64,000 bases of DNA from Endozoicomonas sp. 4G (lineage in GTDB: Bacteria; Pseudomonadota; Gammaproteobacteria; Pseudomonadales; Endozoicomonadaceae), in contig NZ_CP082909.1 in assembly GCF_023822025.1 (NCBI RefSeq), positions 5,810,001-5,874,000 on the forward strand. Reading direction: 5' to 3'. A program made the translations under genes and the position numbers. Positions within the stretch are counted from its first letter, which is position 1. Every line of letters starts with the position of its first letter. The notes under the pieces are model-generated. The model searched no databases. It was given only the letters and a program-made list of their open reading frames with translations, and was not told the DNA's origin. This document shows, piece after piece, positions 1 to 18,761 of this stretch.

Positions 1-96
1 TCGCCCAATCGGGCGGTGATACAAGCGGTCAGTCCGTAGGACTGATAATAAACATCAAGGTTTACGAAAGGCAATGCTTTCTGTAAAATATTTCGC

Positions 97-1218
97 ATGA
101 ACACTAAGCGAGCCTACAAAGAACGATTCTACCCAACACCTGGGCAAACTCAGCTACTTGCTCAGTCGTTTGGTTGTGCTCGATTTGTTTATAACAATAC
201 GCTTCGTTTTCGCACTGATGCCTACTACAAAGACGGGAAATCCATATCCCACTCTGAGGTAGAAAAAAGGCTTGTCTCGCTCAAGACAGAGTTTCCATTT
301 CTGGCTGATGTATCCAGCGTGATTCTTCAACAAAAGCTTAGAGATCAGCAAGAGGCTTTCAAGAAATTTTGTAATGGAAAAGCCAAATACCCTAAATTCA
401 AGAAAAGACACTCAAGACAAAGTATCCGGCTAACAAAGGCCGCTTTCAGATACAAAGATGGTCAGCTTTTCATTGCCAAAAGCGAAGATCCGCTGAATAT
501 CCGGTGGAGCCGACCGCTGTCTTCTGATCCTTCAAGTATCACCATCATCAAAGATCGGGCAGGCCGGTACTTTGTGTCCATGCTGTGTGAGTTTGAAGCT
601 AAACCAATGCCTATTAGTAACAAAGCAGTAGGCATTGATTTAGGTTTGAATGATCTGTTCATCACTTCAGAGGGTGAAAAATCCGGTAACCCAAGGCACA
701 CCAGGCGCTACGAGATAAAGCTCGCCTATCTTCAGCGTCAGATGTCAAAAAAGCAAAAAGGCAGTAGCAACAGAGCCAAAGCAAAGCTCAAGGTTGCACG
801 ACTTCATGCCAAGATTGCCGATTGCCGGATGGATGCCACCCACCAGGCATCACGCAAACTCATTAACGAGAACCAAGTTGTTTGCGTAGAGTCTTTGAAC
901 GTGAAGGGCATGATCAAAAATCCAAAGCTGTCCAAGCACATAGCCGATGCAAACTGGGGGGAGTTTGTCCGCCAGTTGAAATACAAGGCTGATTGGGCGG
1001 GTAGAGATCTGGTTAAGATAGACCGATTCTTTCCAAGCTCTAAACGCTGTTCCGGTTGCGGATTTGTCCATGAAAGTCTGCCGTTGTCTATTCGTGAATG
1101 GGAATGTCCGGAATGCAAAACCCATCACGACCGGGACATTAACGCAGCAAAGAATATCAAAACCGCTGGACTGGCGGGGTTAGCCTGTGGAGCGACTGGA
1201 ACGGGGATAGAGGCTTAA
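97..1218 (+). CDS. tnpB: TnpB RNA-guided endonuclease, copy 1
   Basis: TnpB proteins are transposon-encoded nucleases guided by an omega RNA, and they help keep IS200/IS605 elements in place. The 373-residue length fits the family. The three RuvC acidic residues are visible: D181 in GIDLG, E265 in VCVESLNV and D347 in HDRDINAAKN. A zinc ribbon with C318/C321 and C337/C340 sits between the last two. The N-terminal region starts with the typical KRAYKERFYPT. It differs from copy 2 at only eight residues (for example N2K, G320S, I371V), and all catalytic residues are intact in both, so it is likely active. The omega RNA is expected to overlap the 3' end of this gene and the right end of the element. 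Confidence 0.95.
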   Translation: MNTKRAYKERFYPTPGQTQLLAQSFGCARFVYNNTLRFRTDAYYKDGKSISHSEVEKRLVSLKTEFPFLADVSSVILQQKLRDQQEAFKKFCNGKAKYPKFKKRHSRQSIRLTKAAFRYKDGQLFIAKSEDPLNIRWSRPLSSDPSSITIIKDRAGRYFVSMLCEFEAKPMPISNKAVGIDLGLNDLFITSEGEKSGNPRHTRRYEIKLAYLQRQMSKKQKGSSNRAKAKLKVARLHAKIADCRMDATHQASRKLINENQVVCVESLNVKGMIKNPKLSKHIADANWGEFVRQLKYKADWAGRDLVKIDRFFPSSKRCSGCGFVHESLPLSIREWECPECKTHHDRDINAAKNIKTAGLAGLACGATGTGIEA

Positions 1219-1304
1219 AGCCCCTATCTAGGGAAGGCGTGTTGAAGCAGGAAGGTTCTTGGAGCGATCTAAGAACCCTCGCCCGATAGGGCGGGGAGTG
1301 TCAG
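1190..1304 (+). ncRNA. Probable omega-RNA scaffold at the right end of TnpB copy 1
   Basis: In TnpB elements the guide RNA scaffold comes from the 3' end of tnpB plus the right end. Here a stem GATAG (1206-1210) with CTATC (1224-1228) encloses a GGC/GCC inner stem spanning the stop codon. Further hairpins follow: GGTTCTT/AAGAACC at about 1254-1277 and CGCCC/GGGCG near 1280-1294. In copy 2 both sides of the first stem change together (GGTAG/CTACC), which supports real RNA pairing. The start of the RNA is unknown. The guide would begin just after about 1304, in the MFS-side flank. Confidence 0.6.
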
Positions 1305-1314
1305 TCTCTAACAC

Positions 1315-2727
1315 CTATGCGGATGAGACAGTTCTTGTTGTCGTCCGCCGTTCGGCCTTAAGTAGCTTCAATGTTGGCCAAATACAGGCCAGAGCCAACA
1401 GGCTAAGTCCTGAGATGACCCATTCAAGCGAAGAAAATTGCCATTTCAGCGAGTATAAAATCACGATGCCGGCTGGGCCAAAAGAAGCCCCAAGCAAGGT
1501 AAATATACGGGACAGTACACTGGCATCAGGTGTTTGCTGAGGTGTCAGCTCATGAAAAGCGTGAGACATAGCCAACAGGGTTGATAAACCTATTCCAGCT
1601 CCCCTGATTAACAGACTTAGTGATGTCAATATACAGTGGTTGTATAGATCCGGTATTAAAAGTGGCAATGTTCCCACTACAGATAATAAAACTCCCATGA
1701 TACCGGTAAACCCAACCCCCCATCGGTCGCACATTTTTTTTAGGTAGGATCGAGAGACAAGGGCTCCAACGCCTTGTGCACCGATCCATAGACTTACTAT
1801 CCATTCACTTCGACCAAGCTCTTGAATAAACAGAACAGGAAGACCAAACATACCTGCATAGAAGCCAGTACTGGACAGTAACAATAAGATCATGCTTGAC
1901 CGAAATGAATAAGATCGAAACGATGTAATCTGGATAAGGGATTTTTCCCCAACCTGTCGTGCATGCAGTAAAAATACACATAGTAGTAATGCTCCTAATG
2001 TAAAGCTGAAGGCTGCTGTAAGCCATGTATTTTCTTTTAATGTACTGATGTCAGACAGTGAAGATAGACTGAGCACTAATAGAGTTAATGCGGGAGCCAG
2101 AAATAAAAAACCGCCAACGTCGAACTTCGATGGAGTTCGTTCCTGGTTGTCAGGAAGCTTTATAACGGCAAGATAAAAGGCCATTAAGCCTATTGGGATA
2201 TTAATGTAGAAAATCCACCGCCAGTCGCCGATGTGTAATAAGAGGCCAGCAACTACCGGGCCTGCTATTGGTGCCAATACTGTCGGCACAGCCATAGTTG
2301 CCATAGCCGTTTTGAGTAGAGGTTTTCCTACTGACAGAACTAATACCGTTTGCATTCCTGTCATGATGATACCGGCACCAACCCCCTGAAGCCCCCTACT
2401 GAGCAGTAACATGTTTATATTAGGCGAGATTGCTGCTATTAAAGAACTTGCGGTAAAAACGAATAAACCTGTCAACCAAAGCCTTTTAGCGCCTAAACGA
2501 CGGGTAGCCCAGGCGCATAGTGTGACAGTCATGGTAGCGGTAATAGTATATAAAACAGACACCCACTGAAGCTTGGAGATATTCACCTCAAAGCTCTTAG
2601 CAAGGTTTGGAATCGCAACCCCCAGAGCCGTTGCATCGATCAAAGGCATAATGGCGCCTAGGATCAAACTCACTATTACCCAGCGCTGTTCGTGACTGAA
2701 TGTATCTTGATCAGACATAAAATTCAT
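1315..2727 (-). CDS. MFS drug/metabolite exporter, DHA2 (EmrB/QacA) type
   Basis: The 470-residue protein is almost all membrane segments and matches the 14-helix DHA2 family of proton-driven exporters. Visible landmarks are the first helix with PLIDATALGVAIP, the SRGLQGVGAG stretch, and the motif-C-like APIAGPVVAG that marks antiporters. The start at 2727 (ATG, with a second ATG nine bases later) lies inside the 3' end of the restored P450 frame, which stops at 2711, so the two genes are translationally coupled. It probably exports the product of the upstream cyclodipeptide synthase and P450, though that is inference from context. The 3' end lies about ten bases from the TnpB right end. Base composition is A+T-rich like its operon partners. 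Confidence 0.85.
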   Translation of the reverse strand: MNFMSDQDTFSHEQRWVIVSLILGAIMPLIDATALGVAIPNLAKSFEVNISKLQWVSVLYTITATMTVTLCAWATRRLGAKRLWLTGLFVFTASSLIAAISPNINMLLLSRGLQGVGAGIIMTGMQTVLVLSVGKPLLKTAMATMAVPTVLAPIAGPVVAGLLLHIGDWRWIFYINIPIGLMAFYLAVIKLPDNQERTPSKFDVGGFLFLAPALTLLVLSLSSLSDISTLKENTWLTAAFSFTLGALLLCVFLLHARQVGEKSLIQITSFRSYSFRSSMILLLLSSTGFYAGMFGLPVLFIQELGRSEWIVSLWIGAQGVGALVSRSYLKKMCDRWGVGFTGIMGVLLSVVGTLPLLIPDLYNHCILTSLSLLIRGAGIGLSTLLAMSHAFHELTPQQTPDASVLSRIFTLLGASFGPAGIVILYSLKWQFSSLEWVISGLSLLALACIWPTLKLLKAERRTTTRTVSSA

Positions 2728-3970
2728 CTACACTCCGCGTTCTATCCGATGTATGTCGTTTTGTTTGTATAGAAGGAGTGAATATCAGCTTTAAAGAGTC
2801 TGGGCCTCGAGTATACAGACCACTTTCATGGTAATCATTTACATCAGTCATCTGCATGTTTGGCAGTTGGTCCAAGAGAATGTTTGCTGAACACTCTAAC
2901 TGAAGTAGAGAAAATGCTGCTCCAAGACAAGTATGGATACCTGAACCAAAAGCAAGTTGTCGGCTCTTGGCTTGCCCATTTTTTCTCCGTCGTAAAATAA
3001 ATTTTTCAGGATCATAAAAGACATTAGGATCGCGGTTAGCGGCTCAAATCATACAAAAGACATGTTCACCCTGTTCAATCTTGATACCGGAAATAACGCA
3101 ATCGCTGCTAGCTTCCCTGGGAATCAGCTGTACAGGGGAAGTTAGTCGTAACGTCTCTTCCAATGCTTCACGGATAAGGGATCTGTCATTTAAAACGGCA
3201 TGAAATATATCCGGTGTATCCATTAGGTGCTTGAACATCATGGCTAGTGTCTTATCAGCAGGCTCAGTGGCTGCCAAAAGAATATTCAGACACAGGGCAG
3301 TAATTTCGCTGGTTGACATCCTTAAGTCAGCTTCTTGAGTACCATCACACAAAAGAGAGATAAAATCGTCCCCAGGGTTTAGGCGTCGCTCTTCTACTAT
3401 GGGAGTAATTAAGCTTATTAAGCGTTTACTGCAATCCAGACTATGTGCTTTTTGGTCATCGGTTTGATCAAACAAGGTGATGAACTCGGCAATTCCTTTA
3501 TGCCATTGGGCAATTTCTTGATAGTTCTCGGTCGGTAGACCTAGAATCCCTAAGGTTACTAACACTGCATAGTCTCTGCCGAATTCTCTAACAAGATCGA
3601 TTTTTCCAAGAGGCAAATAAGGTTTAATAAGCTCTTTGGTGACGTTAGTGATCATTGGTTGATAAAGTTTAGTGAAATATTCTTTGGTTAAACCATGAAG
3701 CACCATGCGGCGTTTGGTGAAATGTTCTTTACCTTCCATTTGTGCCAGTACTCGATCCCCCATCACTGGCTCAGCTCGTTTCATTAGTGGTTTGGTAGTG
3801 AAGATTGATGATTTTAAAATCTTATCGACATCATTATACTTTCCAATGAGATAAGTTTTGTTTTTCCTGTCAACGTAGATTAAATCCTTAGCATGCATCT
3901 CTCGATAGAGAGGGTATGGGTTTCGTGCTAAATCTGGATTATGAATACTAATTGAAGCTAGTTGGGACAT
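2711..3970 (-). pseudogene. Cytochrome P450 with a single in-frame TGA stop
   Basis: Reading stops after residue 308, but the same frame goes on without any shift to 2711 and gives 419 codons, the normal bacterial P450 length. The first part has the ExxR motif (E272/R275) and an I-helix stretch LLAATEPADKT. The part after the stop gives AANRDP and then the haem loop FGSGIHTCLG with the cysteine ligand at codon 348. The TGA (3044-3046) stands where this motif usually reads IGAANRDP, so one G-to-T change of GGA would explain it. The truncated 308-residue product lacks the haem cysteine and could not bind haem normally. Readthrough, recent loss or a sequencing error are all possible. It sits 35 bases after the cyclodipeptide synthase, so it was probably its tailoring oxidase. 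Confidence 0.85.
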
Positions 3971-4005
3971 TGGTAAAAATCCTTAAATCTAATCGAAAGG
4001 GAAAA

Positions 4006-4776
4006 TTAACGCAGGCTTATTAATCCATAACTTTGCTTTGGCTTAACTTTAACTGGGTAATGACCTTTATATAAACCCTCACCTATGGGCCAGACTCGAT
4101 GATAAAAAAATGTAGAATAGGGAACGTTTAACAGCGATGGTGTATCTAGGAAAAACGGTAACTCTGCGAAAATGTAGGGCAAGGCATCATTAACAAGTTG
4201 TGATTTAAGCTCACTGTCTTGGCGACCTTTTCCCCTAAGACGGCCTCGCACTGCCATTTGTGACATGGTTAAACAGTCTTGACGAAATCGTGAGCAGTTT
4301 GCAAACGCCTTCTTGGCTTCAAAATTTAAGCTCTTATAGCTTGTGTTGTCTATAAAATCACTGAACTGAATGATTTTTGCCGGCGTACTTCTTAACTCAT
4401 ACAATGACAGTAAGTAAGTTAAATGAGTTTTGTGACGTCTGAGTTCCCGCCGAGTCTTCTTTATGGCTTTCTTTTCTTCCATACCTGTTGCTATGAGTAA
4501 TCGGGATGCTTCTGAAAGGCAGGGCATCAATATATCAAATCTTTTGAATCGTCTTGCAATAAAATTCACCAAACTAGTTACATATGTTTTTGAAAACTGA
4601 GAATTAAACGGGCTTATACCAATAAGGGCATGTTCACCTTGTTGAATTATGGATTCACAGCGAGGTGTTGCCCCTGAAATATAAAGTTCCTTGCATTGAT
4701 TTTTTTCTGAAAAATCACAAGGAGTAGGGGGTTGTCTGAACGAATCTACATAGCTGATGGTTGATAGCTGACTCAT
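4006..4776 (-). CDS. Cyclodipeptide synthase (AlbC-like)
   Basis: Cyclodipeptide synthases join two amino acids from charged tRNAs into a 2,5-diketopiperazine. The 256-residue protein has the family hallmarks in register with AlbC as I recall it: the stretch GEHALIGISPFNSQFS with the nucleophilic serine S55 (AlbC S37) and N58 (AlbC N40), then Y201 and E205 in YIFAELPFFLD (AlbC Y178/E182), and Y225 in FYH (AlbC Y202). The Y-to-Y spacing of 24 residues is the same. A basic segment at 107-118 (KTRRELRRHKTH) could be the tRNA-binding helix. N58 points to the NYQ-type subfamily, but I cannot name the product. It is first in a minus-strand run with the P450 and MFS genes and diverges from the AraC-family gene. 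Confidence 0.9.
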   Translation of the reverse strand: MSQLSTISYVDSFRQPPTPCDFSEKNQCKELYISGATPRCESIIQQGEHALIGISPFNSQFSKTYVTSLVNFIARRFKRFDILMPCLSEASRLLIATGMEEKKAIKKTRRELRRHKTHLTYLLSLYELRSTPAKIIQFSDFIDNTSYKSLNFEAKKAFANCSRFRQDCLTMSQMAVRGRLRGKGRQDSELKSQLVNDALPYIFAELPFFLDTPSLLNVPYSTFFYHRVWPIGEGLYKGHYPVKVKPKQSYGLISLR

Positions 4777-4882
4777 GATTGGCTCTTATTTGTTGTATAC
4801 ATGTGTTTTTCGAGTTTGGACAGATACCGATCTACCTAACTCACTGTTGTTGTGAGAGTATTTATACAAAGAATTTGAGCCT
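4777..4882. promoter_or_regulatory. Divergent promoter region between cyclodipeptide synthase and AraC-type regulator
   Basis: This 106-base A+T-rich gap is the only place from which the minus-strand biosynthetic genes and the plus-strand regulator could both start. It contains TATA-like stretches (GTATAC near 4794, TATTTATAC near 4858) but no promoter pair that I can assign with confidence. An AraC-family protein would be expected to bind here. That is inference from gene order. Confidence 0.4.
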
Positions 4883-5716
4883 GTGAATGTTGCATATATG
4901 GCAAGCAGTATTGAGAAACCGTCAATGAGTGGTAAAGCTCTAGTGGAGTCACTGACTGACCTGGGTCTTAGTCCGGTCTTTCCCGTGAAAGTGATGACCA
5001 AAGAGGTCAAATCACGTTCAGAAACCTCATTGCATAAGCATTACTGGAGTCAGTTGGTGTTCTCTGACAGGGGAGCTACCCAAGTGACAACGTCAAGTAT
5101 GACCTATTGGGTTCCTCCGCATCATGCAGTTTGGATTCCACCTGATCATATACATTCAGCCTCACTGCTTGAGCGCGCGAGTTTATTCTCAGTCTATTTC
5201 TTAAAACATAACCCTCTGTTTGGTTCGTTTGATTGGCACCGGTGTCAATGCTTTGAGGTATCTTGTCTGCTTGGAGAGCTAATTAAAAAGATGTCGGCAA
5301 CAAACCCTGAAACTATGCCCGAAGAAATTTATAATGCTCTTTGCAAGCTTATATACACAGAAATAGCACAGAGTCGGCCTATCCCAATTGGTGTGCCCAT
5401 GCCAAAGGACAGACGATTGAGGCATTTGTGTCAACTGTTCTTAAATTCACCACAGCAGTATGTGACACTTCATGATTTAGCTGCTGTAGTGGGGGCTAGC
5501 GAAAGTACTATTGGACGACTCTTCAGGAATGAGTTGAATATGACTTTCAGCCAGTGGCGACAGCAAGCACTGCTGGCCAGCGCCATAACATTAGCCGCTA
5601 AAAAAATGTCTATTGGCAGAATCGCACTTGAGCTCGGTTATTCCAGTCACAGTGCTTTTACCGCGATGGTGACATCTATTGTAGGAAAATCTCCTAAGCA
5701 CTTTTTGAATCAATGA
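4883..5716 (+). CDS. AraC-family transcriptional regulator
   Basis: The 277-residue protein has an N-terminal cupin-like sensing part (about 50-110, with the HKHYWSQLVF and WVPPHHAVWIPPDHIHS stretches typical of AraC_binding_2-like proteins). The C-terminal double helix-turn-helix spans about 190-275 and includes VTLHDLAAVVGASESTIGRLF and IALELGYSSHSAFTAMV. It is divergent from the cyclodipeptide synthase and is the obvious candidate for a pathway-specific regulator, which is not proven. The start is uncertain: in-frame ATGs lie at codons 1, 6 and 15, and none has a strong ribosome-binding site. The stop at 5714-5716 abuts the FG-GAP gene remnant on the other strand. Confidence 0.88.
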   Translation: MNVAYMASSIEKPSMSGKALVESLTDLGLSPVFPVKVMTKEVKSRSETSLHKHYWSQLVFSDRGATQVTTSSMTYWVPPHHAVWIPPDHIHSASLLERASLFSVYFLKHNPLFGSFDWHRCQCFEVSCLLGELIKKMSATNPETMPEEIYNALCKLIYTEIAQSRPIPIGVPMPKDRRLRHLCQLFLNSPQQYVTLHDLAAVVGASESTIGRLFRNELNMTFSQWRQQALLASAITLAAKKMSIGRIALELGYSSHSAFTAMVTSIVGKSPKHFLNQ

Positions 5717-5940
5717 CTTTAAGTAAAGCGCGATCGTTTCTCCAAACCCGGTCAGGTCTGCCATACCATCACCATTCATGTCAGCAAAGAGGCGAGGGAA
5801 CTTACTGTCAGTGTTCCAGCTTCTCTATTCGTTGAGGTTGGAAAATGGCTTGCTCTTTACGAAGTTGGCATTATTACCCTCTGTATCATCGGTCAGCCAG
5901 TCAAGTGTGAAAGTGCTTTCAGAAGAGTGAAAAATTGTTT
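5716..5940 (-). pseudogene. Remnant of an FG-GAP/VCBS repeat gene
   Basis: On the minus strand this gap reads as one broken FG-GAP repeat: a stretch ending LDWLTDDTEGNN, then an in-frame TAG, then WNTDSKFPRLFADMNGDGMADLTGFGETIAL. The DMNGDGMADLTGFG piece is a clear FG-GAP calcium-binding signature. No start codon or longer frame is present, so only a fragment of a large surface or secreted repeat protein is left. It begins where the AraC gene ends, which suggests that the cyclodipeptide cluster arrived in or next to this gene. The rest of the 5717-6049 gap is covered by this fragment and the PhoX promoter. Confidence 0.6.
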
Positions 5941-5945
5941 TAATC

Positions 5946-5985
5946 CTGTCACATTAAATAAATCTTATTGTCACAATCATGTCGT
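5946..5985 (+). promoter_or_regulatory. Pho-box-like PhoB site upstream of phoX
   Basis: Heptamers resembling the PhoB half-site CTGTCAT occur at 5946 (CTGTCAC), 5968 (TTGTCAC) and 5979 (ATGTCGT). The starts are 22 and then 11 bases apart, which matches the 11-base repeat period of Pho boxes. The site is 65-105 bases before the phoX start. Control by phosphate starvation is therefore likely but inferred. Confidence 0.5.
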
Positions 5986-6049
5986 TTAATGAGTCCGGCT
6001 TAGAGGATATTCGATAACAAATAAAGCTGGCTCGAACGACAGGTATAAC

Positions 6050-8101
6050 ATGAGCAAAAATACTTTTGATCCGACGGTGTACAACTCCAGTGATAACAAG
6101 CCGATCTCGGCAGTGCTGGAAAAAGAACTCTCCCGCCGTGGGGTTTTGAAGCGTGGGGGTGCGCTGGCAGCCTTTACAGCACTGGCCAGTGTTGGTTTGG
6201 CTGGCTGTAACGATAACGACTCTGATGTGGTGACCCCGCCATCCAGGCTCTCTCTGGGCTTTGAATCCATTCCCGGAACTAAAACTGACGCTGTGTCTGT
6301 ACCTCCTGGCTATACCGCTCAGGTTCTGGCGCCATGGGGCACACCCTTGAATGATAAAGCGGCAGAATGGAAAGACGACGGCACCAACACTTCTGAAGAC
6401 CAGGCCAATGCCACCGGCATGATGCACGACGGTATGCACTTCTTCCCGCTGGAAGGCAGCAGTACAGAAGGTCTGCTCTGTATCAATCATGAATATATTT
6501 CTCAAAGCCGATTGCATCCCAACGGAGATACCAAAGTTGATGGTAAGCGTCCCGCTGAGGAAGTGCGCAAAGAAATTAACGCCCACGGTGTGGCGGTCGT
6601 TCACATCAAACTGACCGACGGTGTCTGGGACGTTGTTAAAAACAGCAAATACAACAAGCGTTACACCGCAGCGACTGAAATGGATCTGACCGGGCCGGTG
6701 GCTGACAGTGATCTGCTGATCACCAAATACACCAATGAGAAAGGGAATAAAGCCCTTGCCCGAGGCACCAACAATAACTGTGGTAATGGTCACACGCCCT
6801 GGGGCACCTATCTGACCTGTGAAGAAAACTGGCCTGGCTATTTTGTCCGCACTGATGCCATCGATAACTGGACTGAAGAACAAAAACGTCTGGGTATCAG
6901 TGACGAAGGCACCCGTTATGATTGGGAAACTGTGGAGCCAGCGGACGAAAACGAAACCGGCGAGTTTACCCGTTTTAATGTAACCCCGGGTTCTGGAGCG
7001 GCGACTGAAGATTTCCGTAACGAAGCCAATGGTCACGGATACATCGTAGAAATCGATCCCTATAATCCTGATACCCGAGCCACCAAACGGACAGCTCTGG
7101 GTCGCTTCCGTCACGAAGACTGCTCATTTGGCAAGCTGGTAGAAGGTCAGCCAGTGGTTTTCTATTCGGGTCATGACAGCCGATTCGAATACATTTACAA
7201 GTTCGTTTCCAAAGAACTCTGGAACCCGGCAGACGCCAACCCTGAAGATCGTCTGGCTACCGGTGCCAAGTATATGAATGAAGGGACTTTGTATGCCGCT
7301 CGCTTTGATGTAGGAGGTAAGGGTGAATGGCTGCCTCTGACGCCTGAAGCAACCACCAAAGCAGGTGGAAAATTAGGTGATGTTGCCGGATTCGCAACTC
7401 TGGCTGAGGTGCTCCTGAATGCTCCGGGCGCTGCTGACGAGGTGGGTGCGACCCCGATGGACCGTCCTGAATGGACGGCGGTCGATCCGAAAACCGGTTC
7501 TGTTTATGTCACACTGACAAACAACACCCGTCGTGATAATGGCGACGGTAACTCCGATACCGATACGAATGCCGCCAACCCTCGTGAAGATAATGAGCAT
7601 GGTCATATTATTCGCTGGGATGAAGGGGCTGACCCAAGCCAGTTTACCTGGCAATTCTTCCTGTTTGGTTCGTTCGCTTCTGAACGCACCCTGGTGAACC
7701 TGTCCGGTCTGAACGAAACCAATGAGTTTGGCAGCCCGGATGGCCTGGCCTTTGATGATCGCGGTCTGCTTTGGATTCAAACAGACGGCGGTGACAATGA
7801 CAATACCAATGACCAGATGCTGGCCGTTATTCCCTCTGAGCTGAACACCACAGAAGGCTTACCAGTCGTTAACGCTAACAACCAGGATCAACTGAAGCGT
7901 TTCTTTGTCGGTCCAAACGATTGTGAAGTGACCGGCCTGGCCTTTACGCCTGATAACCAGAGCTTTTTCCTGAACCTGCAGCATCCGGGCAACTGGCCTG
8001 CTCCTAACACAATCGATGCAACGGATGGCACTGGTGCTATCAGGGCACGTTCTGCCACGGTGGTTATTATGAAAGATGGTGGTGGTGAAGTGGGGGTTTA
8101 A
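6050..8101 (+). CDS. phoX: PhoX-family alkaline phosphatase, Tat-exported lipoprotein
   Basis: PhoX enzymes are calcium/iron-dependent phosphatases that free phosphate from organic esters outside the inner membrane. The 683-residue length and DUF839-type body fit. The N-terminal region has a twin-arginine signal (SRRGVLKRGG, R29/R30), then a hydrophobic stretch ending in a lipobox LAGC with C53, so it should leave by the Tat path and be lipid-anchored. Later motifs include the conserved CINHEYI, NNCGNGHTPWGTYLTCEENW and PDGLAFDDRGLLWIQTDGG. A Pho-box-like site lies upstream, and tatA/tatC lie 2 kb downstream. A strong terminator follows. Confidence 0.9.
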   Translation: MSKNTFDPTVYNSSDNKPISAVLEKELSRRGVLKRGGALAAFTALASVGLAGCNDNDSDVVTPPSRLSLGFESIPGTKTDAVSVPPGYTAQVLAPWGTPLNDKAAEWKDDGTNTSEDQANATGMMHDGMHFFPLEGSSTEGLLCINHEYISQSRLHPNGDTKVDGKRPAEEVRKEINAHGVAVVHIKLTDGVWDVVKNSKYNKRYTAATEMDLTGPVADSDLLITKYTNEKGNKALARGTNNNCGNGHTPWGTYLTCEENWPGYFVRTDAIDNWTEEQKRLGISDEGTRYDWETVEPADENETGEFTRFNVTPGSGAATEDFRNEANGHGYIVEIDPYNPDTRATKRTALGRFRHEDCSFGKLVEGQPVVFYSGHDSRFEYIYKFVSKELWNPADANPEDRLATGAKYMNEGTLYAARFDVGGKGEWLPLTPEATTKAGGKLGDVAGFATLAEVLLNAPGAADEVGATPMDRPEWTAVDPKTGSVYVTLTNNTRRDNGDGNSDTDTNAANPREDNEHGHIIRWDEGADPSQFTWQFFLFGSFASERTLVNLSGLNETNEFGSPDGLAFDDRGLLWIQTDGGDNDNTNDQMLAVIPSELNTTEGLPVVNANNQDQLKRFFVGPNDCEVTGLAFTPDNQSFFLNLQHPGNWPAPNTIDATDGTGAIRARSATVVIMKDGGGEVGV

Positions 8102-8125
8102 ATAGTCGACACTGACTGCCTATAT

Positions 8126-8165
8126 AAAAAAGCCGATGAGTGAAATGCTCATCGGCTTTTTTTGT
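8126..8165 (+). terminator. Intrinsic terminator after phoX
   Basis: A 10-bp perfect stem AGCCGATGAG/CTCATCGGCT (8131-8140 and 8148-8157) with a seven-base loop is followed by a run of T. It starts about 25 bases after the phoX stop. The flanking A and T runs would let it work in both directions. Confidence 0.9.
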
Positions 8166-8180
8166 TGTGAACAATCTACG

Positions 8181-8266
8181 TTCATCCTGAGCGGAGTCGA
8201 AGGATGTGGACTCCGAACCAACAATAAAGACCGTGCCTGGCACCCTTCGACTCCGCTCAGGGTGAA
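8181..8266. repeat. Inverted pair of 26-bp REP-like repeats
   Basis: The arms at 8181-8206 and 8241-8266 are inverted copies that match at 24 of 26 positions; the core is CTGAGCGGAGTCGAAGG. They enclose a 34-base spacer. A diverged relative with CCCTTCGAC and GTCGAAGGA arms lies at 16349-16398, so this is a dispersed family. The pair sits in the gap between phoX and the minus-strand ATPase gene. Confidence 0.75.
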
Positions 8267-8370
8267 CGGAGTTTGGGTGCCATTAATAATTTGGAGCGTG
8301 AGAACGAGGGGTGTACGGATATCAGAGCTTAGCTGCACTAGCGGCAGAACAAAACCAGATGGCCAGGTAC

Positions 8371-9609
8371 TTATATATCATTGCGCCAGAGCCAATCCAC
8401 TGGCACCGCCATGCAGTTTTCTGTTTTGAGTGGCAGTGCATTGTTACCACAATAAATTAATACGCCACCTTTAAAGCGTTCGCCAGCCTGGTCAGCAAGG
8501 CACCTTAGTCCTTCTCCGTCTTTTTCCTGAATACTGATAGCTTTTTTAATTTCTATGCCGTAGATATCACGATTATATTCGATGACCAGATCCACCTCCA
8601 CCTTGTTTTTATCCCGGTAATGGCTGAGGTGAACAGGATCATCCAGCCATTCGGTCTGGGCTCTTATCTGTTGTATGACAAAGCTCTCCAGAACCGGACC
8701 GAAGGGGGTCGAATAGTCCCGCCATTCTTCAGCTTTCAGCCGATCCAGCATGGTTGCCAGCCCACTGTCTGCAATATGAATTTTCGGTGCTTTTACCAAG
8801 CGTTTGGCAGCATTGTTATGCCATGCTGGCAAACGGTAAAAGAGAAACAGGTGCTCCAGGATACTAATGTATTTATCGGTGGTTTCGCGTCGTATTTTCA
8901 AGTCAGTGGCGATGCTACTGATATTGAGCAGATTTCCAGTACGAAGGGATAGTAGTTCAGCCAGCTTCAGCATTTTATCTTCGTCACGAATATTGGCAAT
9001 ATCCCGAATGTCATTTTGAATAATGGTCTGAAGATACTGATTAAACCATTGTCGTGCACGATGGGGTGTGTGGGTATTGGGCTCAGGAAAGCCGCCCTGA
9101 CAAACCCGTTCAGCGATCCCATGAATTTCTTTTTGCTCACCTTTGATAGAGGCAGACAGGGTTTGTGTGAAGAGGCGTTGTAAAAAGACGGGAGGAATTG
9201 ATTCTTTTTCGGCTTCTGTCAGTGGCTGCAGATGCAAAATCTCAATACGCCCGGCAAGCGATTCCTTGACTCTGGGCAATAGCATCAGGTTGGCTGAGCC
9301 TGTCAGCAGAAAGCGGCCAGGTTTGCGATTGCGATCAACTTCAGCCTTGATCGCAAAGAGCAGCTCTGGAACCCGTTGGACTTCATCCAATGTCACGTAT
9401 TCAGGCAGGTTTTGTACAAATCCAGCTGGATCGTCTTTGGCGGCTTGCAATACAGAAGAATCATCAAAGGTCAGGTAGGCCCGCTCAGGGGAAAGCTCCC
9501 GACAAAGCGTTGATTTGCCCACCTGACGAGCCCCAAGCAGGCAGACTACAGGGGTATCCTGCAGGGCTTCGTTTATTTTGGGTTGTAAATAGCGTGGGAA
9601 GAATGTCAT
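8371..9609 (-). CDS. AAA_14/DUF4143 family ATPase
   Basis: The 412-residue protein has an N-terminal P-loop ATPase domain: Walker A GARQVGKST from residue 26, Walker B-like YVTLDEVQRVP and sensor LLTGSANLM. A C-terminal DUF4143 domain follows, with a nuclease-like fold; the stretch DLVIEYNRDIYGIEIKKA resembles a PD-(D/E)xK core. Members are common in bacteria and archaea but their role is largely unknown. The gene stands alone between the repeat pair and the 23-bp tandem repeats. The ATG at 9609 is preceded on its strand by an AGG-type ribosome-binding site. Confidence 0.85.
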   Translation of the reverse strand: MTFFPRYLQPKINEALQDTPVVCLLGARQVGKSTLCRELSPERAYLTFDDSSVLQAAKDDPAGFVQNLPEYVTLDEVQRVPELLFAIKAEVDRNRKPGRFLLTGSANLMLLPRVKESLAGRIEILHLQPLTEAEKESIPPVFLQRLFTQTLSASIKGEQKEIHGIAERVCQGGFPEPNTHTPHRARQWFNQYLQTIIQNDIRDIANIRDEDKMLKLAELLSLRTGNLLNISSIATDLKIRRETTDKYISILEHLFLFYRLPAWHNNAAKRLVKAPKIHIADSGLATMLDRLKAEEWRDYSTPFGPVLESFVIQQIRAQTEWLDDPVHLSHYRDKNKVEVDLVIEYNRDIYGIEIKKAISIQEKDGEGLRCLADQAGERFKGGVLIYCGNNALPLKTENCMAVPVDWLWRNDI

Positions 9610-9631
9610 CAGGAGGTGCTTCTGGTTGCGA

Positions 9632-9698
9632 CTAATTGTCTATTACTCTAGCGTCTAATTGCCTATTTAGCTTCCGTCTAATTGCCGGTTTCGTTCTT
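9632..9698. repeat. 23-bp tandem repeat, almost three units, upstream of the DUF4143 gene
   Basis: CTAATTGTC/CTAATTGCC starts at 9632, 9655 and 9678, exactly 23 bases apart. The first two units agree along their length (CTAATTGYCTATT, then a variable part ending in CGT). The third keeps the first half only. The array lies 22-90 bases before the start of the minus-strand ATPase gene, so it may be an operator array for it. It is too short and unevenly conserved to be a CRISPR. Confidence 0.7.
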
Positions 9699-9845
9699 TA
9701 TTTTCTTTTTTATCTAATAAAAACAGATAGTTATAACATTCTTTTGGCAGCTTCAGTATAGGCGTTTTTGCAGGCCGGAAATGGCCTGCTGCCAGCTATT
9801 AAAATCCCTCGGTAAACACGAGCCTTGGTGCGGCTTCGCTCATCC

Positions 9846-10592
9846 TCAAGAAGACTTTTTCATAAAAGGCGTCACCCGGGCAAACAGCAACCCAAGCTCA
9901 AACAACAGCCACATAGGTCCCGCCAGCAGGCTTTGGGAGATAATGTCCGGTGGTGTCAACAGCATACCGATCACAAAACAGCCTACGACGATATAAGGGC
10001 GTTTTTTGGACAGGGATTCAAGGCTGCTTACGCCAGACCAGATCAATAATACCGTTGCCACAGGGATTTCAAAGGCCAGCCCAAAGGCAAGGAACAGTTT
10101 CAGAATAAAGTTCAGGTAGCTGCTGATGTCGGTCATCATGGTGACCGTTTCAGGCCCGGTGGAGGTGAAGAAGCCAAAAACCAGCGGGAACACCACAAAA
10201 TAGGCAAAAGCGACGCCTGCATAAAAGAGTATGACGCTGGCTATCAGCAAGGGAATGGCCAGGTGCTTTTCCTTCTTGTACAAGCCAGGAGCGATAAACC
10301 CCCAGACCTGATGGAGAATAAAAGGAATAGCCAGGAACATTGAGAGCACAAGGCTGAGTTTGAAGGGAGCGAAGAAAGGTGAAGCAACATCGGTGGCTAT
10401 CATGCTGGTGCCTTCGGGCATCAACAGGCGCAGAGGTTCAGACACCAGCTCATAAATGTCACTGGCAAAGTAAAACAGCCCGGCAAAGAACAGCAGGGTG
10501 ACCACCACACTTTTCAGTACACGGGTTCGTAACTCAAGCAAGTGCTGAATCAGGGGTTGTTCTGATTGAACTGTTGGGGTTTCAGTGTTCAT
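9846..10592 (-). CDS. tatC: Sec-independent protein translocase TatC
   Basis: TatC is the inner-membrane receptor for twin-arginine signal peptides. The protein has six predicted membrane helices and the family signature near the N-terminus (HLLELRTRVLKSV), plus SPFFAPFKLS and VWGFIAPGLYKKEK. I chose the ATG at 10592 because GAGAG lies just before it. A longer frame with a TTG or ATG at 10613/10610 would start inside a hairpin. The result is 248 residues. It follows tatA on the same strand with a hairpin between, and no tatB is found. Confidence 0.93.
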   Translation of the reverse strand: MNTETPTVQSEQPLIQHLLELRTRVLKSVVVTLLFFAGLFYFASDIYELVSEPLRLLMPEGTSMIATDVASPFFAPFKLSLVLSMFLAIPFILHQVWGFIAPGLYKKEKHLAIPLLIASVILFYAGVAFAYFVVFPLVFGFFTSTGPETVTMMTDISSYLNFILKLFLAFGLAFEIPVATVLLIWSGVSSLESLSKKRPYIVVGCFVIGMLLTPPDIISQSLLAGPMWLLFELGLLFARVTPFMKKSS

Positions 10593-10611
10593 AATTCTCT
10601 CGGCAGGCATC

Positions 10612-10643
10612 AAATAAAGGCAGCGCTCAGGCTGCCTTTATTG
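10612..10643 (-). terminator. Perfect 12-bp hairpin between tatA and tatC
   Basis: AATAAAGGCAGC (10613-10624) and GCTGCCTTTATT (10631-10642) form a perfect stem with a six-base loop. On the minus strand it lies just after tatA and ends in T-rich sequence. It resembles a weak intrinsic terminator or an RNA-processing signal that would lower tatC relative to tatA. Confidence 0.65.
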
Positions 10644-10671
10644 TGGAATCGATCAAACACGCTGGCAGCCC

Positions 10672-10893
10672 TCAGGCTTTGTTGTGACTCAGTTCCCTGT
10701 TCTTGTCGATGTCCTGATGATGGGTGGCCAGGTTTTCTGCCGAACCGGAGTCATCGCTGACGCTCTTCTTGAAGCCCTTGATAGCTCCCCCCAGGTCACT
10801 GCCAAGACCCTTGAGTCGTTTGGTGCCAAACAGCATGGCAACGATCAACAGTACGATTAACAGTTGCCAGATACTGATACCGCCGAGGCCCAT
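10672..10893 (-). CDS. tatA: Twin-arginine translocase subunit TatA
   Basis: TatA forms the protein-conducting assembly of the Tat system. The 73-residue protein has the standard layout: short N-terminus, one membrane helix (about 5-21, [14 protein letters not shown]), the [10 protein letters not shown] hinge, an amphipathic helix ([14 protein letters not shown]) and a polar charged tail. It could be TatA or TatE by sequence. TatB would have a longer, more acidic tail and a Glu/Pro hinge, which is not seen here. It heads the tatA-tatC run on the minus strand. Confidence 0.93.
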
Positions 10894-11059
10894 AGTGATG
10901 CTTCCTTTATGATTTTTTGAAAGCGGTCACTATAGCGTTTGATTATGGAAAAATTATGACAATCTCCCCGTTGTGGTAGAGTTTGCATCAAATCATCAAT
11001 TTAGCCACTGAGATGAAGTTGCTGTATTCTGTAAGCTCCGATTTTGGTACTCATGAATC

Positions 11060-12463
11060 ATGCTGGAAGCACTGCCCCAAGAAAACGAACTGCCCATTGA
11101 TGAAGCAACCGTAAGCCTCAAGACACCGCCTCATTCCATTGAGGCGGAGCAGTCTGTGCTGGGTGGCCTGCTGCTGGATAATGAAGCCTGGGATAAAGTG
11201 GCCGACAAGATCACGGCTGAAGACTTTTATCATCCCCGCCATAAAATTATTTTCTCGTCGATGGCTAAATCGGCGAACGAGACTCTTCCCTTTGATCCCC
11301 TGACACTGGCCACCACCCTAGAGAACCAGGATGAACTGGAACAGGCCGGTGGCATGGTGTACATCACTGAATTGGTGGCCAATGTTGCCGGTATTGCCAA
11401 CATTGAGGCTTACGCCGGCATTATTCAGGAGGCTTCAGTTAAAAGAAAGGTGATCAACGCCAGTCAAAAGATGGCTGAAATCTCCTACAACCCTGAAGGC
11501 CGGGACAGCCAGACGATACTGGATGAAGCGGAACGACTGGTTTTCAACATCGCTGAAGAGCGCCCTAAAACCGGCGGCCCGGTAGGTGTTCGGGAAATCC
11601 TGGACAACACGGTTGAGAAAATTGATGAGCTTTTTAATGCTGGCGATGCCATCACCGGTATCACCACAGGTTTCAATGACCTGGACAATATGACCTCGGG
11701 TATGCAGCCGTCGGATATGATTATTGTTGCGGCCAGGCCGTCGATGGGAAAGACGACATTCGCCATGAATTTGGTCGAAAACGCCCTACTGAATACCGAA
11801 AAAGTAGTCATGGTTTTCAGCCTGGAAATGCCCTCCGAGCAGCTGATGATGCGTATGCTGTCTTCACTGGGGCGGATCAACCAGGGCAAAGTGCGTTCCG
11901 GTAAACTGGAAGAAGAAGACTGGCCTAAGCTGGTGTCAGCGGTAGAAAGAATCAAAGATAAAAAACTGTTTATTGATGACACCGCAGGCATCAGCCCTTC
12001 TGAAATGCGTTCCCGTATCCGTCGTGTGGTGCGTGAGCATGGTGATATGGCCATGATTATGATCGACTATCTGCAGCTGATGCAGATTCCCGGTTTCAGT
12101 GAAGGTCGTACCAACGAAATCTCGGAAATTTCCCGATCCCTGAAAGCCATCGCCAAGGAGTTCAACGTACCGGTGATTGCGCTGTCTCAGCTGAACCGAT
12201 CCCTGGAGCAACGCCCCAACAAGCGCCCGGTCAACTCCGACCTCCGTGAATCCGGAGCGATTGAGCAGGATGCTGACGTTATCATGTTTATCTATCGTGA
12301 TGAGGTATATAACCCGGATACCGAATTTAAAGGTATAGGCGAAATCATCATTGGCAAGCAGCGTAACGGCCCCATCGGTTCGGTAAGATTGGCCTTTATC
12401 GGTCAGTACACCCGGTTTGAGAATCTCGCTCCCGATGCTTATGTTAATTTTGATGATGAATAA
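11060..12463 (+). CDS. dnaB: Replicative DNA helicase DnaB
   Basis: DnaB is the hexameric 5'-3' helicase of the replication fork. The 467-residue length is typical. The N-terminal primase-interaction domain (about 20-130, starting PPHSIEAEQSVLGGLL) leads through a linker to the RecA-like core, with Walker A ARPSMGKTT (K231), the SLEMPSEQL motif, Walker B MIMIDYLQLM and the arginine-rich LSQLNRSLEQRPNKRP. The last core motif is EIIIGKQRNGPIGSV. No intein is seen. In many relatives alr follows dnaB; here a short frame and a Schlafen-type gene follow instead. Confidence 0.98.
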   Translation: MLEALPQENELPIDEATVSLKTPPHSIEAEQSVLGGLLLDNEAWDKVADKITAEDFYHPRHKIIFSSMAKSANETLPFDPLTLATTLENQDELEQAGGMVYITELVANVAGIANIEAYAGIIQEASVKRKVINASQKMAEISYNPEGRDSQTILDEAERLVFNIAEERPKTGGPVGVREILDNTVEKIDELFNAGDAITGITTGFNDLDNMTSGMQPSDMIIVAARPSMGKTTFAMNLVENALLNTEKVVMVFSLEMPSEQLMMRMLSSLGRINQGKVRSGKLEEEDWPKLVSAVERIKDKKLFIDDTAGISPSEMRSRIRRVVREHGDMAMIMIDYLQLMQIPGFSEGRTNEISEISRSLKAIAKEFNVPVIALSQLNRSLEQRPNKRPVNSDLRESGAIEQDADVIMFIYRDEVYNPDTEFKGIGEIIIGKQRNGPIGSVRLAFIGQYTRFENLAPDAYVNFDDE

Positions 12464-12479
12464 GCAGGGAGTGATAGAC

Positions 12480-12578
12480 GTGGAACCTGTTCAGAAATTT
12501 GCGGCTGATATTCTCGAAGTAGGAAAAGCTGCTTTTAATCAACGTCGTGAAAAGTACGGATTGAATCGAATATGCTGA
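12480..12578 (+). CDS. Possible 32-residue ORF coupled to the Schlafen-type gene
   Basis: A GTG at 12480, preceded by CAGGGAG, opens a 32-codon frame (VEPVQKFAADILEVGK and so on). It ends at a TGA that overlaps the ATG of the next gene by several bases. The overlap would suit translational coupling. I do not recognise the peptide. It could be a real small protein, a leader frame, or the remains of a gene lost when the Schlafen-type gene was inserted after dnaB. Confidence 0.3.
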   Translation: MEPVQKFAADILEVGKAAFNQRREKYGLNRIC

Positions 12579-13813
12579 AATCAGAGCTGCTGGAAATTAT
12601 TGCCAATGGGGAAAACTCAGGTGTTGAGTTCAAGCGAGATGATATTCGTCCTGAGCAGCTAGCTGAAGAAGTCGTAGCAATGGCCAACCTCAAAGGAGGT
12701 ATGCTACTACTGGGCGTGGAAGATGATGGCTCCATCAGCGGTATAGCACGAGACAGGCTGGAAGAATGGGTGATGAACGCTATCGCAGATAAAGTTCATC
12801 CCATGTTATTGCCTTATTACGAAGAAGTTCAGCTTGACTCTGATCATCGTATTGCTGTGATCAGCTTTACCGAAGGAGTATCAAAACCCTATGTGGTAAG
12901 GCATAAAGGTCGTGAAGATGTCTGTATTCGAGTCGGTTCAACATCCAGAAAAGCCACAAGAGAGCAGCAGGCAAGATTGTTTGCCAGCGGCGGAATGTTA
13001 CATACCGAAGCCTTGCCTGTAGCGGGTTCCAGCTATGGCTCTCTGGATCATGAGCGACTGCTTGATTATCTGAAAAATGTACTCGTAGACCCTGATATTC
13101 CCAAGAATAAGTCTTCATGGGTTAATCGCTTAATTGGATTAGGGTTTATGGCTGAGGGTGTCAGCTCTCCGGTTTGTACGGTTGCCGGTATGGTATTGTT
13201 TGGCACTTCCCCCAGACGTTATTTAAGGCAGTCTGGGATCAGGGTAGTGGCGTTTGACGGAGAAGATAAAACTTATCAATCGAAGATTGACAAGATATTA
13301 GATTTTCCATTGGTAGGGCTCTGGAAACAAGATGAAGCGGGTGAGCGTCGCTTGGCAAAGATGCACTTTGGACTGATTGAGACGCTGGTTGATCTGATTG
13401 AACCCTATATCAGCGAAGAGTCTGGAGAAATAGACCATCATTTTCGCAGGGAAAGGCATTGGCACTACCCTAAAGCAGCGGTAAGGGAACTGGTTATTAA
13501 TGCTCTTGCGCACAGAGACTGGACCCGGTCTGTCGATATTGAAATAGGGATATACGACGACCGTCTGGAATTAATCAGCCCCGGCACTTTACAAAATTCT
13601 ATGACCATCGAAAAAATGCTGGCGGGCCAGCGTTCCCCGAGAAATCCGATTATAGTCGAAGTTCTCAGGGATTATGGCTATGTCGATGCCAGGGGAATGG
13701 GTGTACGAACCAAAATCGTACCCCTCCTGAAGCAATACAACGGGAACAAGCCGCATTTTGAGTTGACGGAAGACTACCTCAAAACAACCTTCTACAAGAA
13801 AAAGCAGGATTAG
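12572..13813 (+). CDS. Schlafen AlbA_2-domain ATP-binding protein
   Basis: The 413-residue protein starts with an AlbA_2/Schlafen domain (about 10-130: GVEFKRDDIRPEQLAEEVVAMANLKGGMLLLGVEDDG, ending in the nucleic-acid-binding VCIRVGSTSRKAT). It continues with a GHKL-like ATP-binding part (about 290-400: AVRELVINALAHRDW, LELISPGTLQNSM, GMGVRTKIVPLL). Proteins with this layout are often called putative transcriptional regulators, and some sit in phage-defence islands. The function here is unknown. Its stop overlaps the stop of the convergent gene at 13810. Confidence 0.8.
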   Translation: MLKSELLEIIANGENSGVEFKRDDIRPEQLAEEVVAMANLKGGMLLLGVEDDGSISGIARDRLEEWVMNAIADKVHPMLLPYYEEVQLDSDHRIAVISFTEGVSKPYVVRHKGREDVCIRVGSTSRKATREQQARLFASGGMLHTEALPVAGSSYGSLDHERLLDYLKNVLVDPDIPKNKSSWVNRLIGLGFMAEGVSSPVCTVAGMVLFGTSPRRYLRQSGIRVVAFDGEDKTYQSKIDKILDFPLVGLWKQDEAGERRLAKMHFGLIETLVDLIEPYISEESGEIDHHFRRERHWHYPKAAVRELVINALAHRDWTRSVDIEIGIYDDRLELISPGTLQNSMTIEKMLAGQRSPRNPIIVEVLRDYGYVDARGMGVRTKIVPLLKQYNGNKPHFELTEDYLKTTFYKKKQD

Positions 13814-14715
13814 GGCTTGAGGTGCTTACTCAGCCCTCTGTCAAACCCTCCATCAAATAGATCAATACATTCCCGTGTCTGTGCAACCAGAATATCTTCT
13901 TCACTTGGCTCCTCATCGCTATCACTTTGTTCAGGGCTTGGCTCTTCTCTCGGCTCAGCCGTACAAGCAGGCTTAAGGAACCCTGAATAATACAGTGTGG
14001 CCTCGTAAACGATAAAATCTTGTTCTCCCTCACTGACCAGATGAGCTTTCCAGAATTCAGGAGGTTCAGGTACGGGCGCGCAATCTTTACCCGAACATTC
14101 ATAAGATTCGCATTTCTGGTGAGTTGCTGTGGCCCCGACTGAGGCAACAACTCCGGTATCTTTTTCGGAAGCTTCGCCTTGATCACGAGAGTAATTATCA
14201 CACGAACCATCGGAATCGTCAGGGTCATCGGCTACCGCTGGCAGTTGATTGCGATTGATATTGGCCCGGTCCAGATAGTAATTTTTGTCAGGATTGAAGT
14301 GAGCCCTGAAATACTCAGTCAGTAATGGCAAAACAGATGAAAAGTAAGCGTTGATGATGCCCTGCGTAACAAAGTTTGAAGGTTGGAGTTGTGAGGCAGA
14401 ATCAGCAGTATTCAACATAGCACTATTCAACATAGTGGTTCGAAAACCGGCAGTCACAACCATGACTCCATCAACAGTTTGCTCATCTGGTTCTGCATCG
14501 GATGTGCGATGATCCCTGTTAAGCGACCATACTTGAAGCTTTTCGAGACTCAAAAAGTGTTCGGGAAATTTTTCTTCTATGAAAGACCGGAACATTTGAG
14601 AGAGCAGGGATGCTGTTAAAGGCAGTAAAGAATCATATCTGTTATCTCCAGAATACCCAATACGGGGCAGTGACATCACAATCAGGACTGCTACTAACCG
14701 GATCAATCGCTTCAT
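13810..14715 (-). CDS. Secreted protein of unknown function
   Basis: I do not recognise this 301-residue protein. It starts with a clear signal peptide (MKRLIRLVAVLIVMSLPRIGYSG). The middle holds an ordered part (residues 25-150) and then an acidic, cysteine-containing stretch with SCDNY, CESYECSGKDC, CTAE and REC, six cysteines in all. A Glu/Ser/Asp-rich low-complexity segment (about 255-280, REEPSPEQSDSDEEPSEED) lies near the C-terminus. The cysteines suggest disulphides in the periplasm or outside. It is monocistronic and converges on the Schlafen-type gene. Confidence 0.6.
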   Translation of the reverse strand: MKRLIRLVAVLIVMSLPRIGYSGDNRYDSLLPLTASLLSQMFRSFIEEKFPEHFLSLEKLQVWSLNRDHRTSDAEPDEQTVDGVMVVTAGFRTTMLNSAMLNTADSASQLQPSNFVTQGIINAYFSSVLPLLTEYFRAHFNPDKNYYLDRANINRNQLPAVADDPDDSDGSCDNYSRDQGEASEKDTGVVASVGATATHQKCESYECSGKDCAPVPEPPEFWKAHLVSEGEQDFIVYEATLYYSGFLKPACTAEPREEPSPEQSDSDEEPSEEDILVAQTRECIDLFDGGFDRGLSKHLKP

Positions 14716-14995
14716 GGACTTGAACTTTTTTCTGGATACAGAATGATCAACATAGCTAAGGTTAAAAAGGTCGCCAGTAGATGTTCACTGGAACACCGAA
14801 ATACTCAGGTTCCAAGGGTGAATAGTAAATAACCTAAAAGCAACTACAATGTAGTCTCACTCTCTGTATGAGAAAATTTACCAATTCCCGCGTAAAGCAT
14901 CGCCCAATCGGGCGGTGATACAAGCGGTCAGTCCGCAGGACTGATAATAAACATCAAGGTTTTCGAAAGGCAATGCTTTCTGTAAAATATTTCGC

Positions 14996-16117: not shown

Positions 16118-16203
16118 AAGCCCTACCTAGGGAAGGCGTGACGAAGCAGGAAGGTTCTTGGAGCGATCTAAGAACCCTCGCCCGAAAGGGCGGGGAGTGT
16201 CAG
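16089..16203 (+). ncRNA. Probable omega-RNA scaffold at the right end of TnpB copy 2
   Basis: The stem GGTAG (16105-16109) with CTACC (16123-16127) matches GATAG/CTATC of copy 1, with both strands changed so that pairing is kept. The inner GGC/GCC stem, the GGTTCTT/AAGAACC hairpin and the CGCCC/GGGCG hairpin follow as in copy 1. The guide segment would start just past 16203. Confidence 0.6.
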
Positions 16204-16265
16204 ATTTGAGTGAGACGTAGAAAAGTCTAGGAAAAATCTCAGAAAGTATGGAGGGAGATGAGATC

Positions 16266-16347: not shown

Positions 16348-16348
16348 C

Positions 16349-16398: not shown

Positions 16399-16403
16399 AG
16401 AGA

Positions 16404-18729: not shown

Positions 18730-18761
18730 TTTTTTCAGGTCTCCGCTCTTTTATTGAGAGT

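What the first reader, a model, noticed from the sequence alone, without database searches (positions are those of the whole stretch)
2711..5716. Cyclodipeptide cluster: synthase, P450, MFS exporter and divergent AraC regulator
Seen: a protein with all key AlbC-type residues (S55, N58, Y201, E205, Y225), followed on the same strand by a P450 frame and a DHA2 exporter, with an AraC-family gene divergent. Known: cyclodipeptide synthases with P450 partners make modified diketopiperazines such as mycocyclosin and pulcherriminic acid. Inference: this is a compact, possibly undescribed diketopiperazine pathway with its own control and export. The A+T-richer block sits between a TnpB element and a gene remnant, so it was probably acquired.
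Basis: partly seen in the sequence, partly recalled or inferred. Interest (0 to 1): 0.8.

Follow-up and report, generated by a model that had tools for sequence, protein, structure and literature searches.

The report
Interrupted pulcherriminic-acid-type gene cluster
A small inserted set of genes resembles the known recipe for pulcherriminic acid, an iron-binding pigment precursor, but its second enzyme gene is cut short by a stop codon, so as sequenced it probably makes only the unmodified ring of two amino acids.

Summary
The 256-residue protein is a cyclodipeptide synthase (Pfam CDPS, 225 bits, cut-off 27). The five named residues are present, and Y225 is followed by H226 (NYH type). Downstream on the same strand are a P450 frame and an MFS exporter; an AraC-family gene diverges.

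The reading as an undescribed pathway is not supported. The P450 is of the CypX kind (TIGR04538, 549 bits read through, cut-off 500; nearest solved structure Bacillus CypX). Both enzymes fall, with strong support, among the synthase/P450 pairs of Bacillota and actinomycetes. That is the pulcherriminic-acid pair YvmC/CypX, already reported in the gammaproteobacterium Photorhabdus.

New here: the lineage (CDPS in 1 of 10 genus and 1 of 37 family genomes); an AraC neighbour instead of MarR; an exporter type shared with two actinomycetes; and one in-frame TGA at P450 codon 309, which cuts off the haem cysteine. The frame beyond the TGA is undecayed, so the lesion is recent or a sequence error.

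Insertion is well supported: rplI and phoX lie 200-243 bp apart in 6 of 9 congeners, 6.2 kb here. The TnpB element is a separate unit. The host has no name here. Interest is low to moderate.

The parts
4006..4776 (-). cyclodipeptide synthase, NYH type, in the YvmC-type clade, 256 aa
   Evidence: PF16715 225 bits; TIGR04539 214 bits, cut-off 45; best PDB chain YvmC 3oqh, E 4.5e-43; tree clade 100/99
2711..3970 (-). interrupted CypX-type cytochrome P450 gene, one in-frame TGA (3044-3046); N-part 3047-3970 holds the I-helix and ExxR, C-part 2711-3043 holds the haem-cysteine loop
   Evidence: TIGR04538 549.4 bits with 1 TGA inside, cut-off 500; N-part alone 426.7 bits; PDB CypX 3nc3 E 2.5e-83 for the N-part; motifs
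1315..2727 (-). MFS exporter, DHA2/EmrB-like, 470 aa; its start overlaps the end of the P450 frame by 17 nt
   Evidence: MFS_1 141 bits; TIGR00711 200 bits, under its cut-off of 230; 34-35% identical to MFS proteins near the synthase in L045 and L046
4883..5716 (+). AraC-family regulator, divergent, 277 aa
   Evidence: HTH_18 67.8 bits, HTH_AraC 44.4 bits
4777..4882 (.). divergent control region between synthase and regulator; no sigma-70-like site found by consensus scan
1..1304 (+). IS200/IS605-type TnpB element (tnpB 97-1218); begins about 21 bases left of the window; a separate mobile unit next to the cluster
   Evidence: both ends shared with the 5 further copies compared, 97.7-98.5% identical

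Best explanation
An inserted, horizontally acquired pulcherriminic-acid-type cluster. The synthase would join two aminoacyl groups from aminoacyl-tRNA, most likely two leucines, to a cyclodipeptide. A CypX-type P450 would oxidise that ring to pulcherriminic acid, the MFS protein would export the product, and the AraC protein would control the divergent operon. As sequenced, the P450 lacks its haem cysteine because of an in-frame TGA, so the cluster most likely stops at the unoxidised cyclodipeptide. Shown: gene families, order, clade membership, the single stop, insertion relative to congeners. Inferred: substrate, product, export, control, loss of P450 activity, source of the DNA.
For: Family scores. 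Nearest solved structures are YvmC and CypX. Trees: the synthase lies in a 14-row clade (100/99) and the P450 in a 12-row clade (100/100). Of the 13 other synthase rows, 12 have a P450 of this kind directly downstream, L047 none detected. I-helix AATEP[AV]DKT and ExxR in 12 of 12 rows. Catalytic columns and most of the inspected pocket-region columns agree. The order synthase-P450-exporter on one strand, with a homologous exporter, occurs in Streptomyces sp. AC1-42W. Stop: single TGA in 419 codons; C-part 43-51% identical to 11 of 11 relatives, N-part 41-46% to the same 11, so no sign of decay. Insertion: rplI-phoX gap 200-243 bp in 6 of 9 congeners, 6.2 kb here; G+C as low as the lowest tile of the window; no CDPS match in the 36 other family genomes, 9 of them congeners. 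Positive control: both family searches ring, over the cut-off, in 7 of 7 genomes or records known to hold the pair.
Against: The synthase is only 28-40% identical to its clade and has a long end branch (1.48). Column 223, which I take for a pocket position, is F here but L or M in the 13 clade relatives, so leucine is not assured. No product was measured. No match to the AraC protein was found in the DNA held around any relative. The stop may be a sequence error; no reads and no second strain were available. In the tool's own control genomes, Bacillus subtilis gave no CDPS match and only a sub-cut-off TIGR04538 match, although the pair is described from that species; I cannot explain this.
Confidence: 0.78

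Rival explanations
1. The P450 is intact in the living strain (sequence error, or the TGA is read through at a useful rate), and the cluster makes pulcherriminic acid.
For: Only one internal stop in 419 codons and no decay of the C-part.
Against: Single-contig genome rated 100% complete. For selenocysteine: of 27 tRNA-Sec hits, the one over the cut-off and the runner-up are tRNA-Ser(TGA) and the third is tRNA-Leu by ARAGORN; the other 24 weaker hits were not typed, and selA/selB were not sought.
Confidence: 0.25
2. The cluster has a different product: the synthase prefers another amino acid beside or instead of leucine, and loss of the P450 is part of a shift to an exported plain cyclodipeptide.
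For: Divergent synthase with a long branch and F223; P450 stop.
Against: Most other inspected columns match the YvmC-type clade; the P450 C-part shows no decay, so any such state is recent.
Confidence: 0.15
3. A mycocyclosin-type or other aromatic pathway (Rv2275/CYP121).
For: Same two enzyme classes.
Against: Cyclodityrosine synthase model NF052540 99 bits, cut-off 300; P450 nearest CypX and in the CypX-type clade (no CYP121 sequence was put in the tree).
Confidence: 0.02

Closest known systems
Bacillus yvmC-cypX-yvmA-yvmB pulcherriminic acid cluster
   Same: Cyclodipeptide synthase plus CypX-type P450 plus MFS exporter plus regulator; YvmC and CypX are the nearest solved structures
   Different: AraC instead of MarR neighbour; a 470-aa DHA2-like exporter, where the two Bacillota neighbourhoods examined have MFS proteins of 404 and 390 aa (L042, L043); P450 interrupted by TGA
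Synthase/P450/MFS set of Streptomyces sp. AC1-42W (L046) and Actinopolyspora xinjiangensis (L045)
   Same: Synthase 37-40%, P450 N-part 44-46%, exporter 34-35% identical; L046 has the same gene order on one strand
   Different: No match to the AraC protein in the DNA held; exporter on the opposite strand in L045; P450 frames open; no product known to me
Photorhabdus luminescens pulcherriminic-acid-type genes (as reported in PMC5767969; passages seen)
   Same: A gammaproteobacterium with a cyclo(Leu-Leu) synthase and the pulcherriminic acid N-oxygenase
Mycobacterial mycocyclosin pair Rv2275/CYP121
   Same: Synthase plus P450
   Different: Synthase model not met; P450 nearest CypX

Membership tests
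Cyclodipeptide synthases (PF16715 / TIGR04539) | Profile score over the curated cut-off | tested here: met
   225 bits vs 27; 214.2 vs 45
Cyclodipeptide synthases (PF16715 / TIGR04539) | Catalytic residues: serine, tyrosine, glutamate and second tyrosine of AlbC (numbering recalled) and the NYH signature | tested here: met
   S55, N58, Y201, E205, Y225, H226 in the alignments
Cyclo(Leu-Leu) synthase group (YvmC) | Falls in the clade of synthases that stand beside a CypX-type P450 | tested here: met
   14-row clade, 100/99; long end branch noted; YvmC itself was not a row of the tree, Priestia, Caldibacillus and Staphylococcus relatives were
Cyclo(Leu-Leu) synthase group (YvmC) | Pocket residues of the group | tested here: inconclusive
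   Most inspected columns agree; F223 is L or M in the 13 clade relatives. Which columns line the pockets is partly recalled; the logos of PMC5816076 Table 3 are not in the text
Cyclo(Leu-Leu) synthase group (YvmC) | Makes cyclo(Leu-Leu) | not testable with these tools
   needs expression and mass spectrometry
CypX-type P450 (TIGR04538) | Score over the curated cut-off of 500 | tested here: met
   549.4 bits with the TGA read through; the N-part alone 426.7, under the cut-off
CypX-type P450 as a working enzyme | One open frame that includes the haem-cysteine loop | tested here: not met
   loop FGSGIHTCLG lies beyond the in-frame TGA: an interrupted copy, not a working enzyme as sequenced
Mycocyclosin synthase | Cyclodityrosine synthase model NF052540 over its cut-off | tested here: not met
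   99.1 bits vs 300
DHA2 exporters (TIGR00711) | Score over the curated cut-off | tested here: not met
   200.4 bits vs 230.2; MFS_1 is met, 141 vs 33, so it is filed as MFS only

The most novel reading that the evidence does not exclude
A bacterium that acquired a pulcherriminic-acid-type cluster has recently lost the oxidising P450 and now makes and exports a plain leucine-type or altered cyclodipeptide under AraC control, turning an iron-chelator pathway into a cyclodipeptide-release pathway.
Probability: 0.12. Interest if true: 0.5.

Novelty: new member of a known kind. Interest (0 to 1): 0.3.

Why it matters
It extends the pulcherriminic-acid-type gene pair to one more lineage, probably gammaproteobacterial (inference), with a different regulator and with an exporter type shared with actinomycetes, which suggests that this pair travels between phyla. 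If the stop codon is real, it is a natural case of a synthase left without its tailoring enzyme, useful for asking what the bare cyclodipeptide does. It does not open a new kind of chemistry.

Tried and rejected
Mycocyclosin type: synthase model not met, P450 nearest CypX. Frameshift in the P450: rejected; both parts are in one frame with one TGA. Selenocysteine at the TGA: no support; the top three of 27 tRNA-Sec hits are tRNA-Ser, tRNA-Ser and tRNA-Leu by ARAGORN, the other 24 were not typed. TnpB element as carrier of the cluster: not supported; its ends (-21, in one comparison -22, and 1304) are shared with the five further copies compared, and it stops 10 bases before the exporter's stop codon, so it is a separate insertion; its order in time relative to the cluster is unknown. 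Repeats bounding the whole block: one search listed short pairs, none of which I could tie to the ends of the block. Promoter scan of 4700-5000: none found. Phage or plasmid carriage: no match of the synthase in 50,697 phage records; matches in 23 of 72,556 plasmid records, all under 60% identity. The first search of genome contigs with the single protein found nothing; an alignment query then gave 30 loci. Naming the host failed: window 1-20000 against plasmids gave 5 records, all at dnaB, of Pseudomonas, 74-78% identical; this only hints at a gammaproteobacterium.

Rows dropped: synthase tree 35 of 38 rows (left out L086, a fragment of the window's own genome; L040, the same record as L047; L074, partial); P450 tree 31 of 32 rows (left out L055, whose extracted frame was only 30 aa; one search shows a 367-codon open stretch there, so this was an extraction fault or an early stop, not pursued).

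Control that went against expectation: Bacillus subtilis among the 14 control genomes gave no CDPS match and only a sub-cut-off TIGR04538 match. I then ran both families on 7 genomes or records known to hold the pair: 7 of 7 over the cut-off. So the searches can find the pair, but the counts of presence remain lower bounds.

Full report
What is there. The window lies at 5,810,001-5,874,000 of a single-contig genome of 6,004,453 bases. On the minus strand, in order of transcription, lie a 256-aa cyclodipeptide synthase (4776-4006), a P450 frame (3970-2711) and an MFS exporter (2727-1315). Synthase and P450 start are 35 nt apart, and the exporter start overlaps the P450 end by 17 nt, so an operon is likely (inference). 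On the plus strand an AraC-family gene (4883-5716) diverges from the synthase, 106 bp away.

Synthase. PF16715 gives 225 bits (cut-off 27) and TIGR04539 214 bits (cut-off 45). The best solved structures are YvmC (E 4.5e-43), BtCDPS and a cyclo(Leu-Leu) synthase.

Relatives. An alignment query to the species genome collection returned 30 named loci. Nearest by tblastn are Actinopolyspora xinjiangensis (40%) and four Streptomyces (35-37%), then Bacillota (28-34%). In a maximum-likelihood tree of 35 of 38 rows the synthase lies in a 14-row clade, support 100/99, with Bacillota and actinomycete synthases. Twelve of the 13 other rows have a P450 that matches both parts of the window's P450 directly downstream; L047 has none detected. 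The loci outside the clade, Legionella included, show no match to this P450 at E <= 1e-3 in the DNA held, some of it only 3-10 kb. The end branch is long (1.48), so the exact place within the clade is unsure. Of the inspected columns, 208 and 209 are F, F as in 12 of 13 clade relatives, but 223 is F where all 13 have L or M. I take 223 for a pocket position (recalled), so a shifted amino-acid preference cannot be excluded.

P450. TIGR04538 ('cytochrome P450, cyclodipeptide synthase-associated') gives 549.4 bits over a cut-off of 500 when the single internal TGA is read through by the search tool. The N-part alone gives 426.7 bits; relatives with open frames give 509-666 (4 of 4, 7 of 7). The N-part's best solved structure is CypX (E 2.5e-83). 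The window's N-part and 11 relatives form a clade at 100/100, apart from 19 other P450s of the class sample. The I-helix AATEP[AV]DKT and the ExxR motif are found in 12 of 12 rows. The TGA at 3044-3046 is codon 309 of 419, the only internal stop, and it cuts off the haem-cysteine loop. The C-part is 43-51% identical to 11 of 11 relatives, the N-part 41-46% to the same 11, so the C-part has not decayed: the stop is recent or a sequence error. Intact copies exist in the relatives. A tRNA-Sec search gave 27 hits; the one over the cut-off and the runner-up are tRNA-Ser(TGA), the third tRNA-Leu, the rest not typed.

Rarity and insertion. The synthase family is found in 1 of 10 genomes of the genus and 1 of 37 of the family, this genome being the one; 3 of 369 in a class sample exceed the cut-off. 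TIGR04538 over the cut-off: 1 of 369 in the class sample and 1 of 398 in the phylum sample (there with E <= 1e-90), again this genome alone. These are samples of larger groups. A control went against expectation: Bacillus subtilis, one of the tool's 14 control genomes, gave no CDPS match and only a sub-cut-off TIGR04538 match, though the pair is described from that species. A positive control of my own rang in 7 of 7 genomes or records for both families. In the genus, rplI and phoX matches are separated by 200-243 bp in 6 of 9 congeners (G002, G003, G004, G005, G008, G009) and by 1,197 bp in G001 (with another open frame), while G006 has no phoX match and G007 has phoX on another contig; here the gap is 6,173 bp. 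Against G009, conserved DNA ends about 55 bases left of the window and resumes near 5926. The block 2711-5716 has a G+C of 0.411, as low as the lowest of 610 tiles, window 0.486.

TnpB element. It runs from about -21 to 1304; both ends are shared with the five further copies compared, at 97.7-98.5% identity (13 protein matches in the genome). It is thus a separate mobile unit inserted beside the cluster.

Known or not. YvmC makes cyclo(Leu-Leu), CypX oxidises it to pulcherriminic acid, YvmA exports it and the MarR-like YvmB controls it (PMC11610984 and PMC7954767, passages). PMC5767969 (passages) reports the pulcherriminic acid N-oxygenase in Bacillus, Staphylococcus, Corynebacterium and Photorhabdus luminescens, so the pair in a gammaproteobacterium is already in print. 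For the host I could get no name; that it is a gammaproteobacterium is an inference from its dnaB, and Endozoicomonadaceae is a guess from genome sizes. The review PMC12491435 (passages) expands the abbreviation CDPS in the legend of a figure of antiSMASH clusters in that family and Zooshikellaceae, without my seeing in which genomes. Two held papers have both 'cyclodipeptide synthase' and 'Endozoicomonas' (of the second, PMC7993494, only the listing was seen). No held paper has both 'pulcherrimin' and 'Endozoicomonas', nor all of 'cyclodipeptide synthase', 'gammaproteobacteria' and 'pulcherriminic'.

Verdict. A new, taxonomically outlying member of a known kind, with an unusual regulator and exporter and an interrupted P450. 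As sequenced it most likely yields, at most, an exported unoxidised cyclodipeptide.

Noticed in passing
window -21..1304: IS200/IS605-type TnpB element with exact ends; 13 matches to its protein in the genome, five of the others 98% identical over the whole protein.
   Followed up: yes
window 5750-5880, minus strand: Short remnant with an NGDGMADL stretch that resembles an FG-GAP/VCBS repeat protein (family name recalled, not searched), interrupted by stops.
   Followed up: partly
L079 2010-3045 (genome G001): The same rplI-phoX gap holds a different, 270-codon open frame in another species of the genus: the spot may be a favoured insertion site.
   Followed up: no
L044 3989-4696: A Streptomyces plasmid carries a cyclodipeptide synthase beside a heavy-metal P-type ATPase and metal-responsive regulators.
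   Followed up: no
L065, L067, L070, L071: Cyclodipeptide synthases in Endomicrobium-type MAGs, grouped in the tree with those of Holosporales-type MAGs.
   Followed up: no
control genome Bacillus subtilis of the genome search: No CDPS match and only a sub-cut-off TIGR04538 match, although yvmC-cypX is described from this species.
   Followed up: partly
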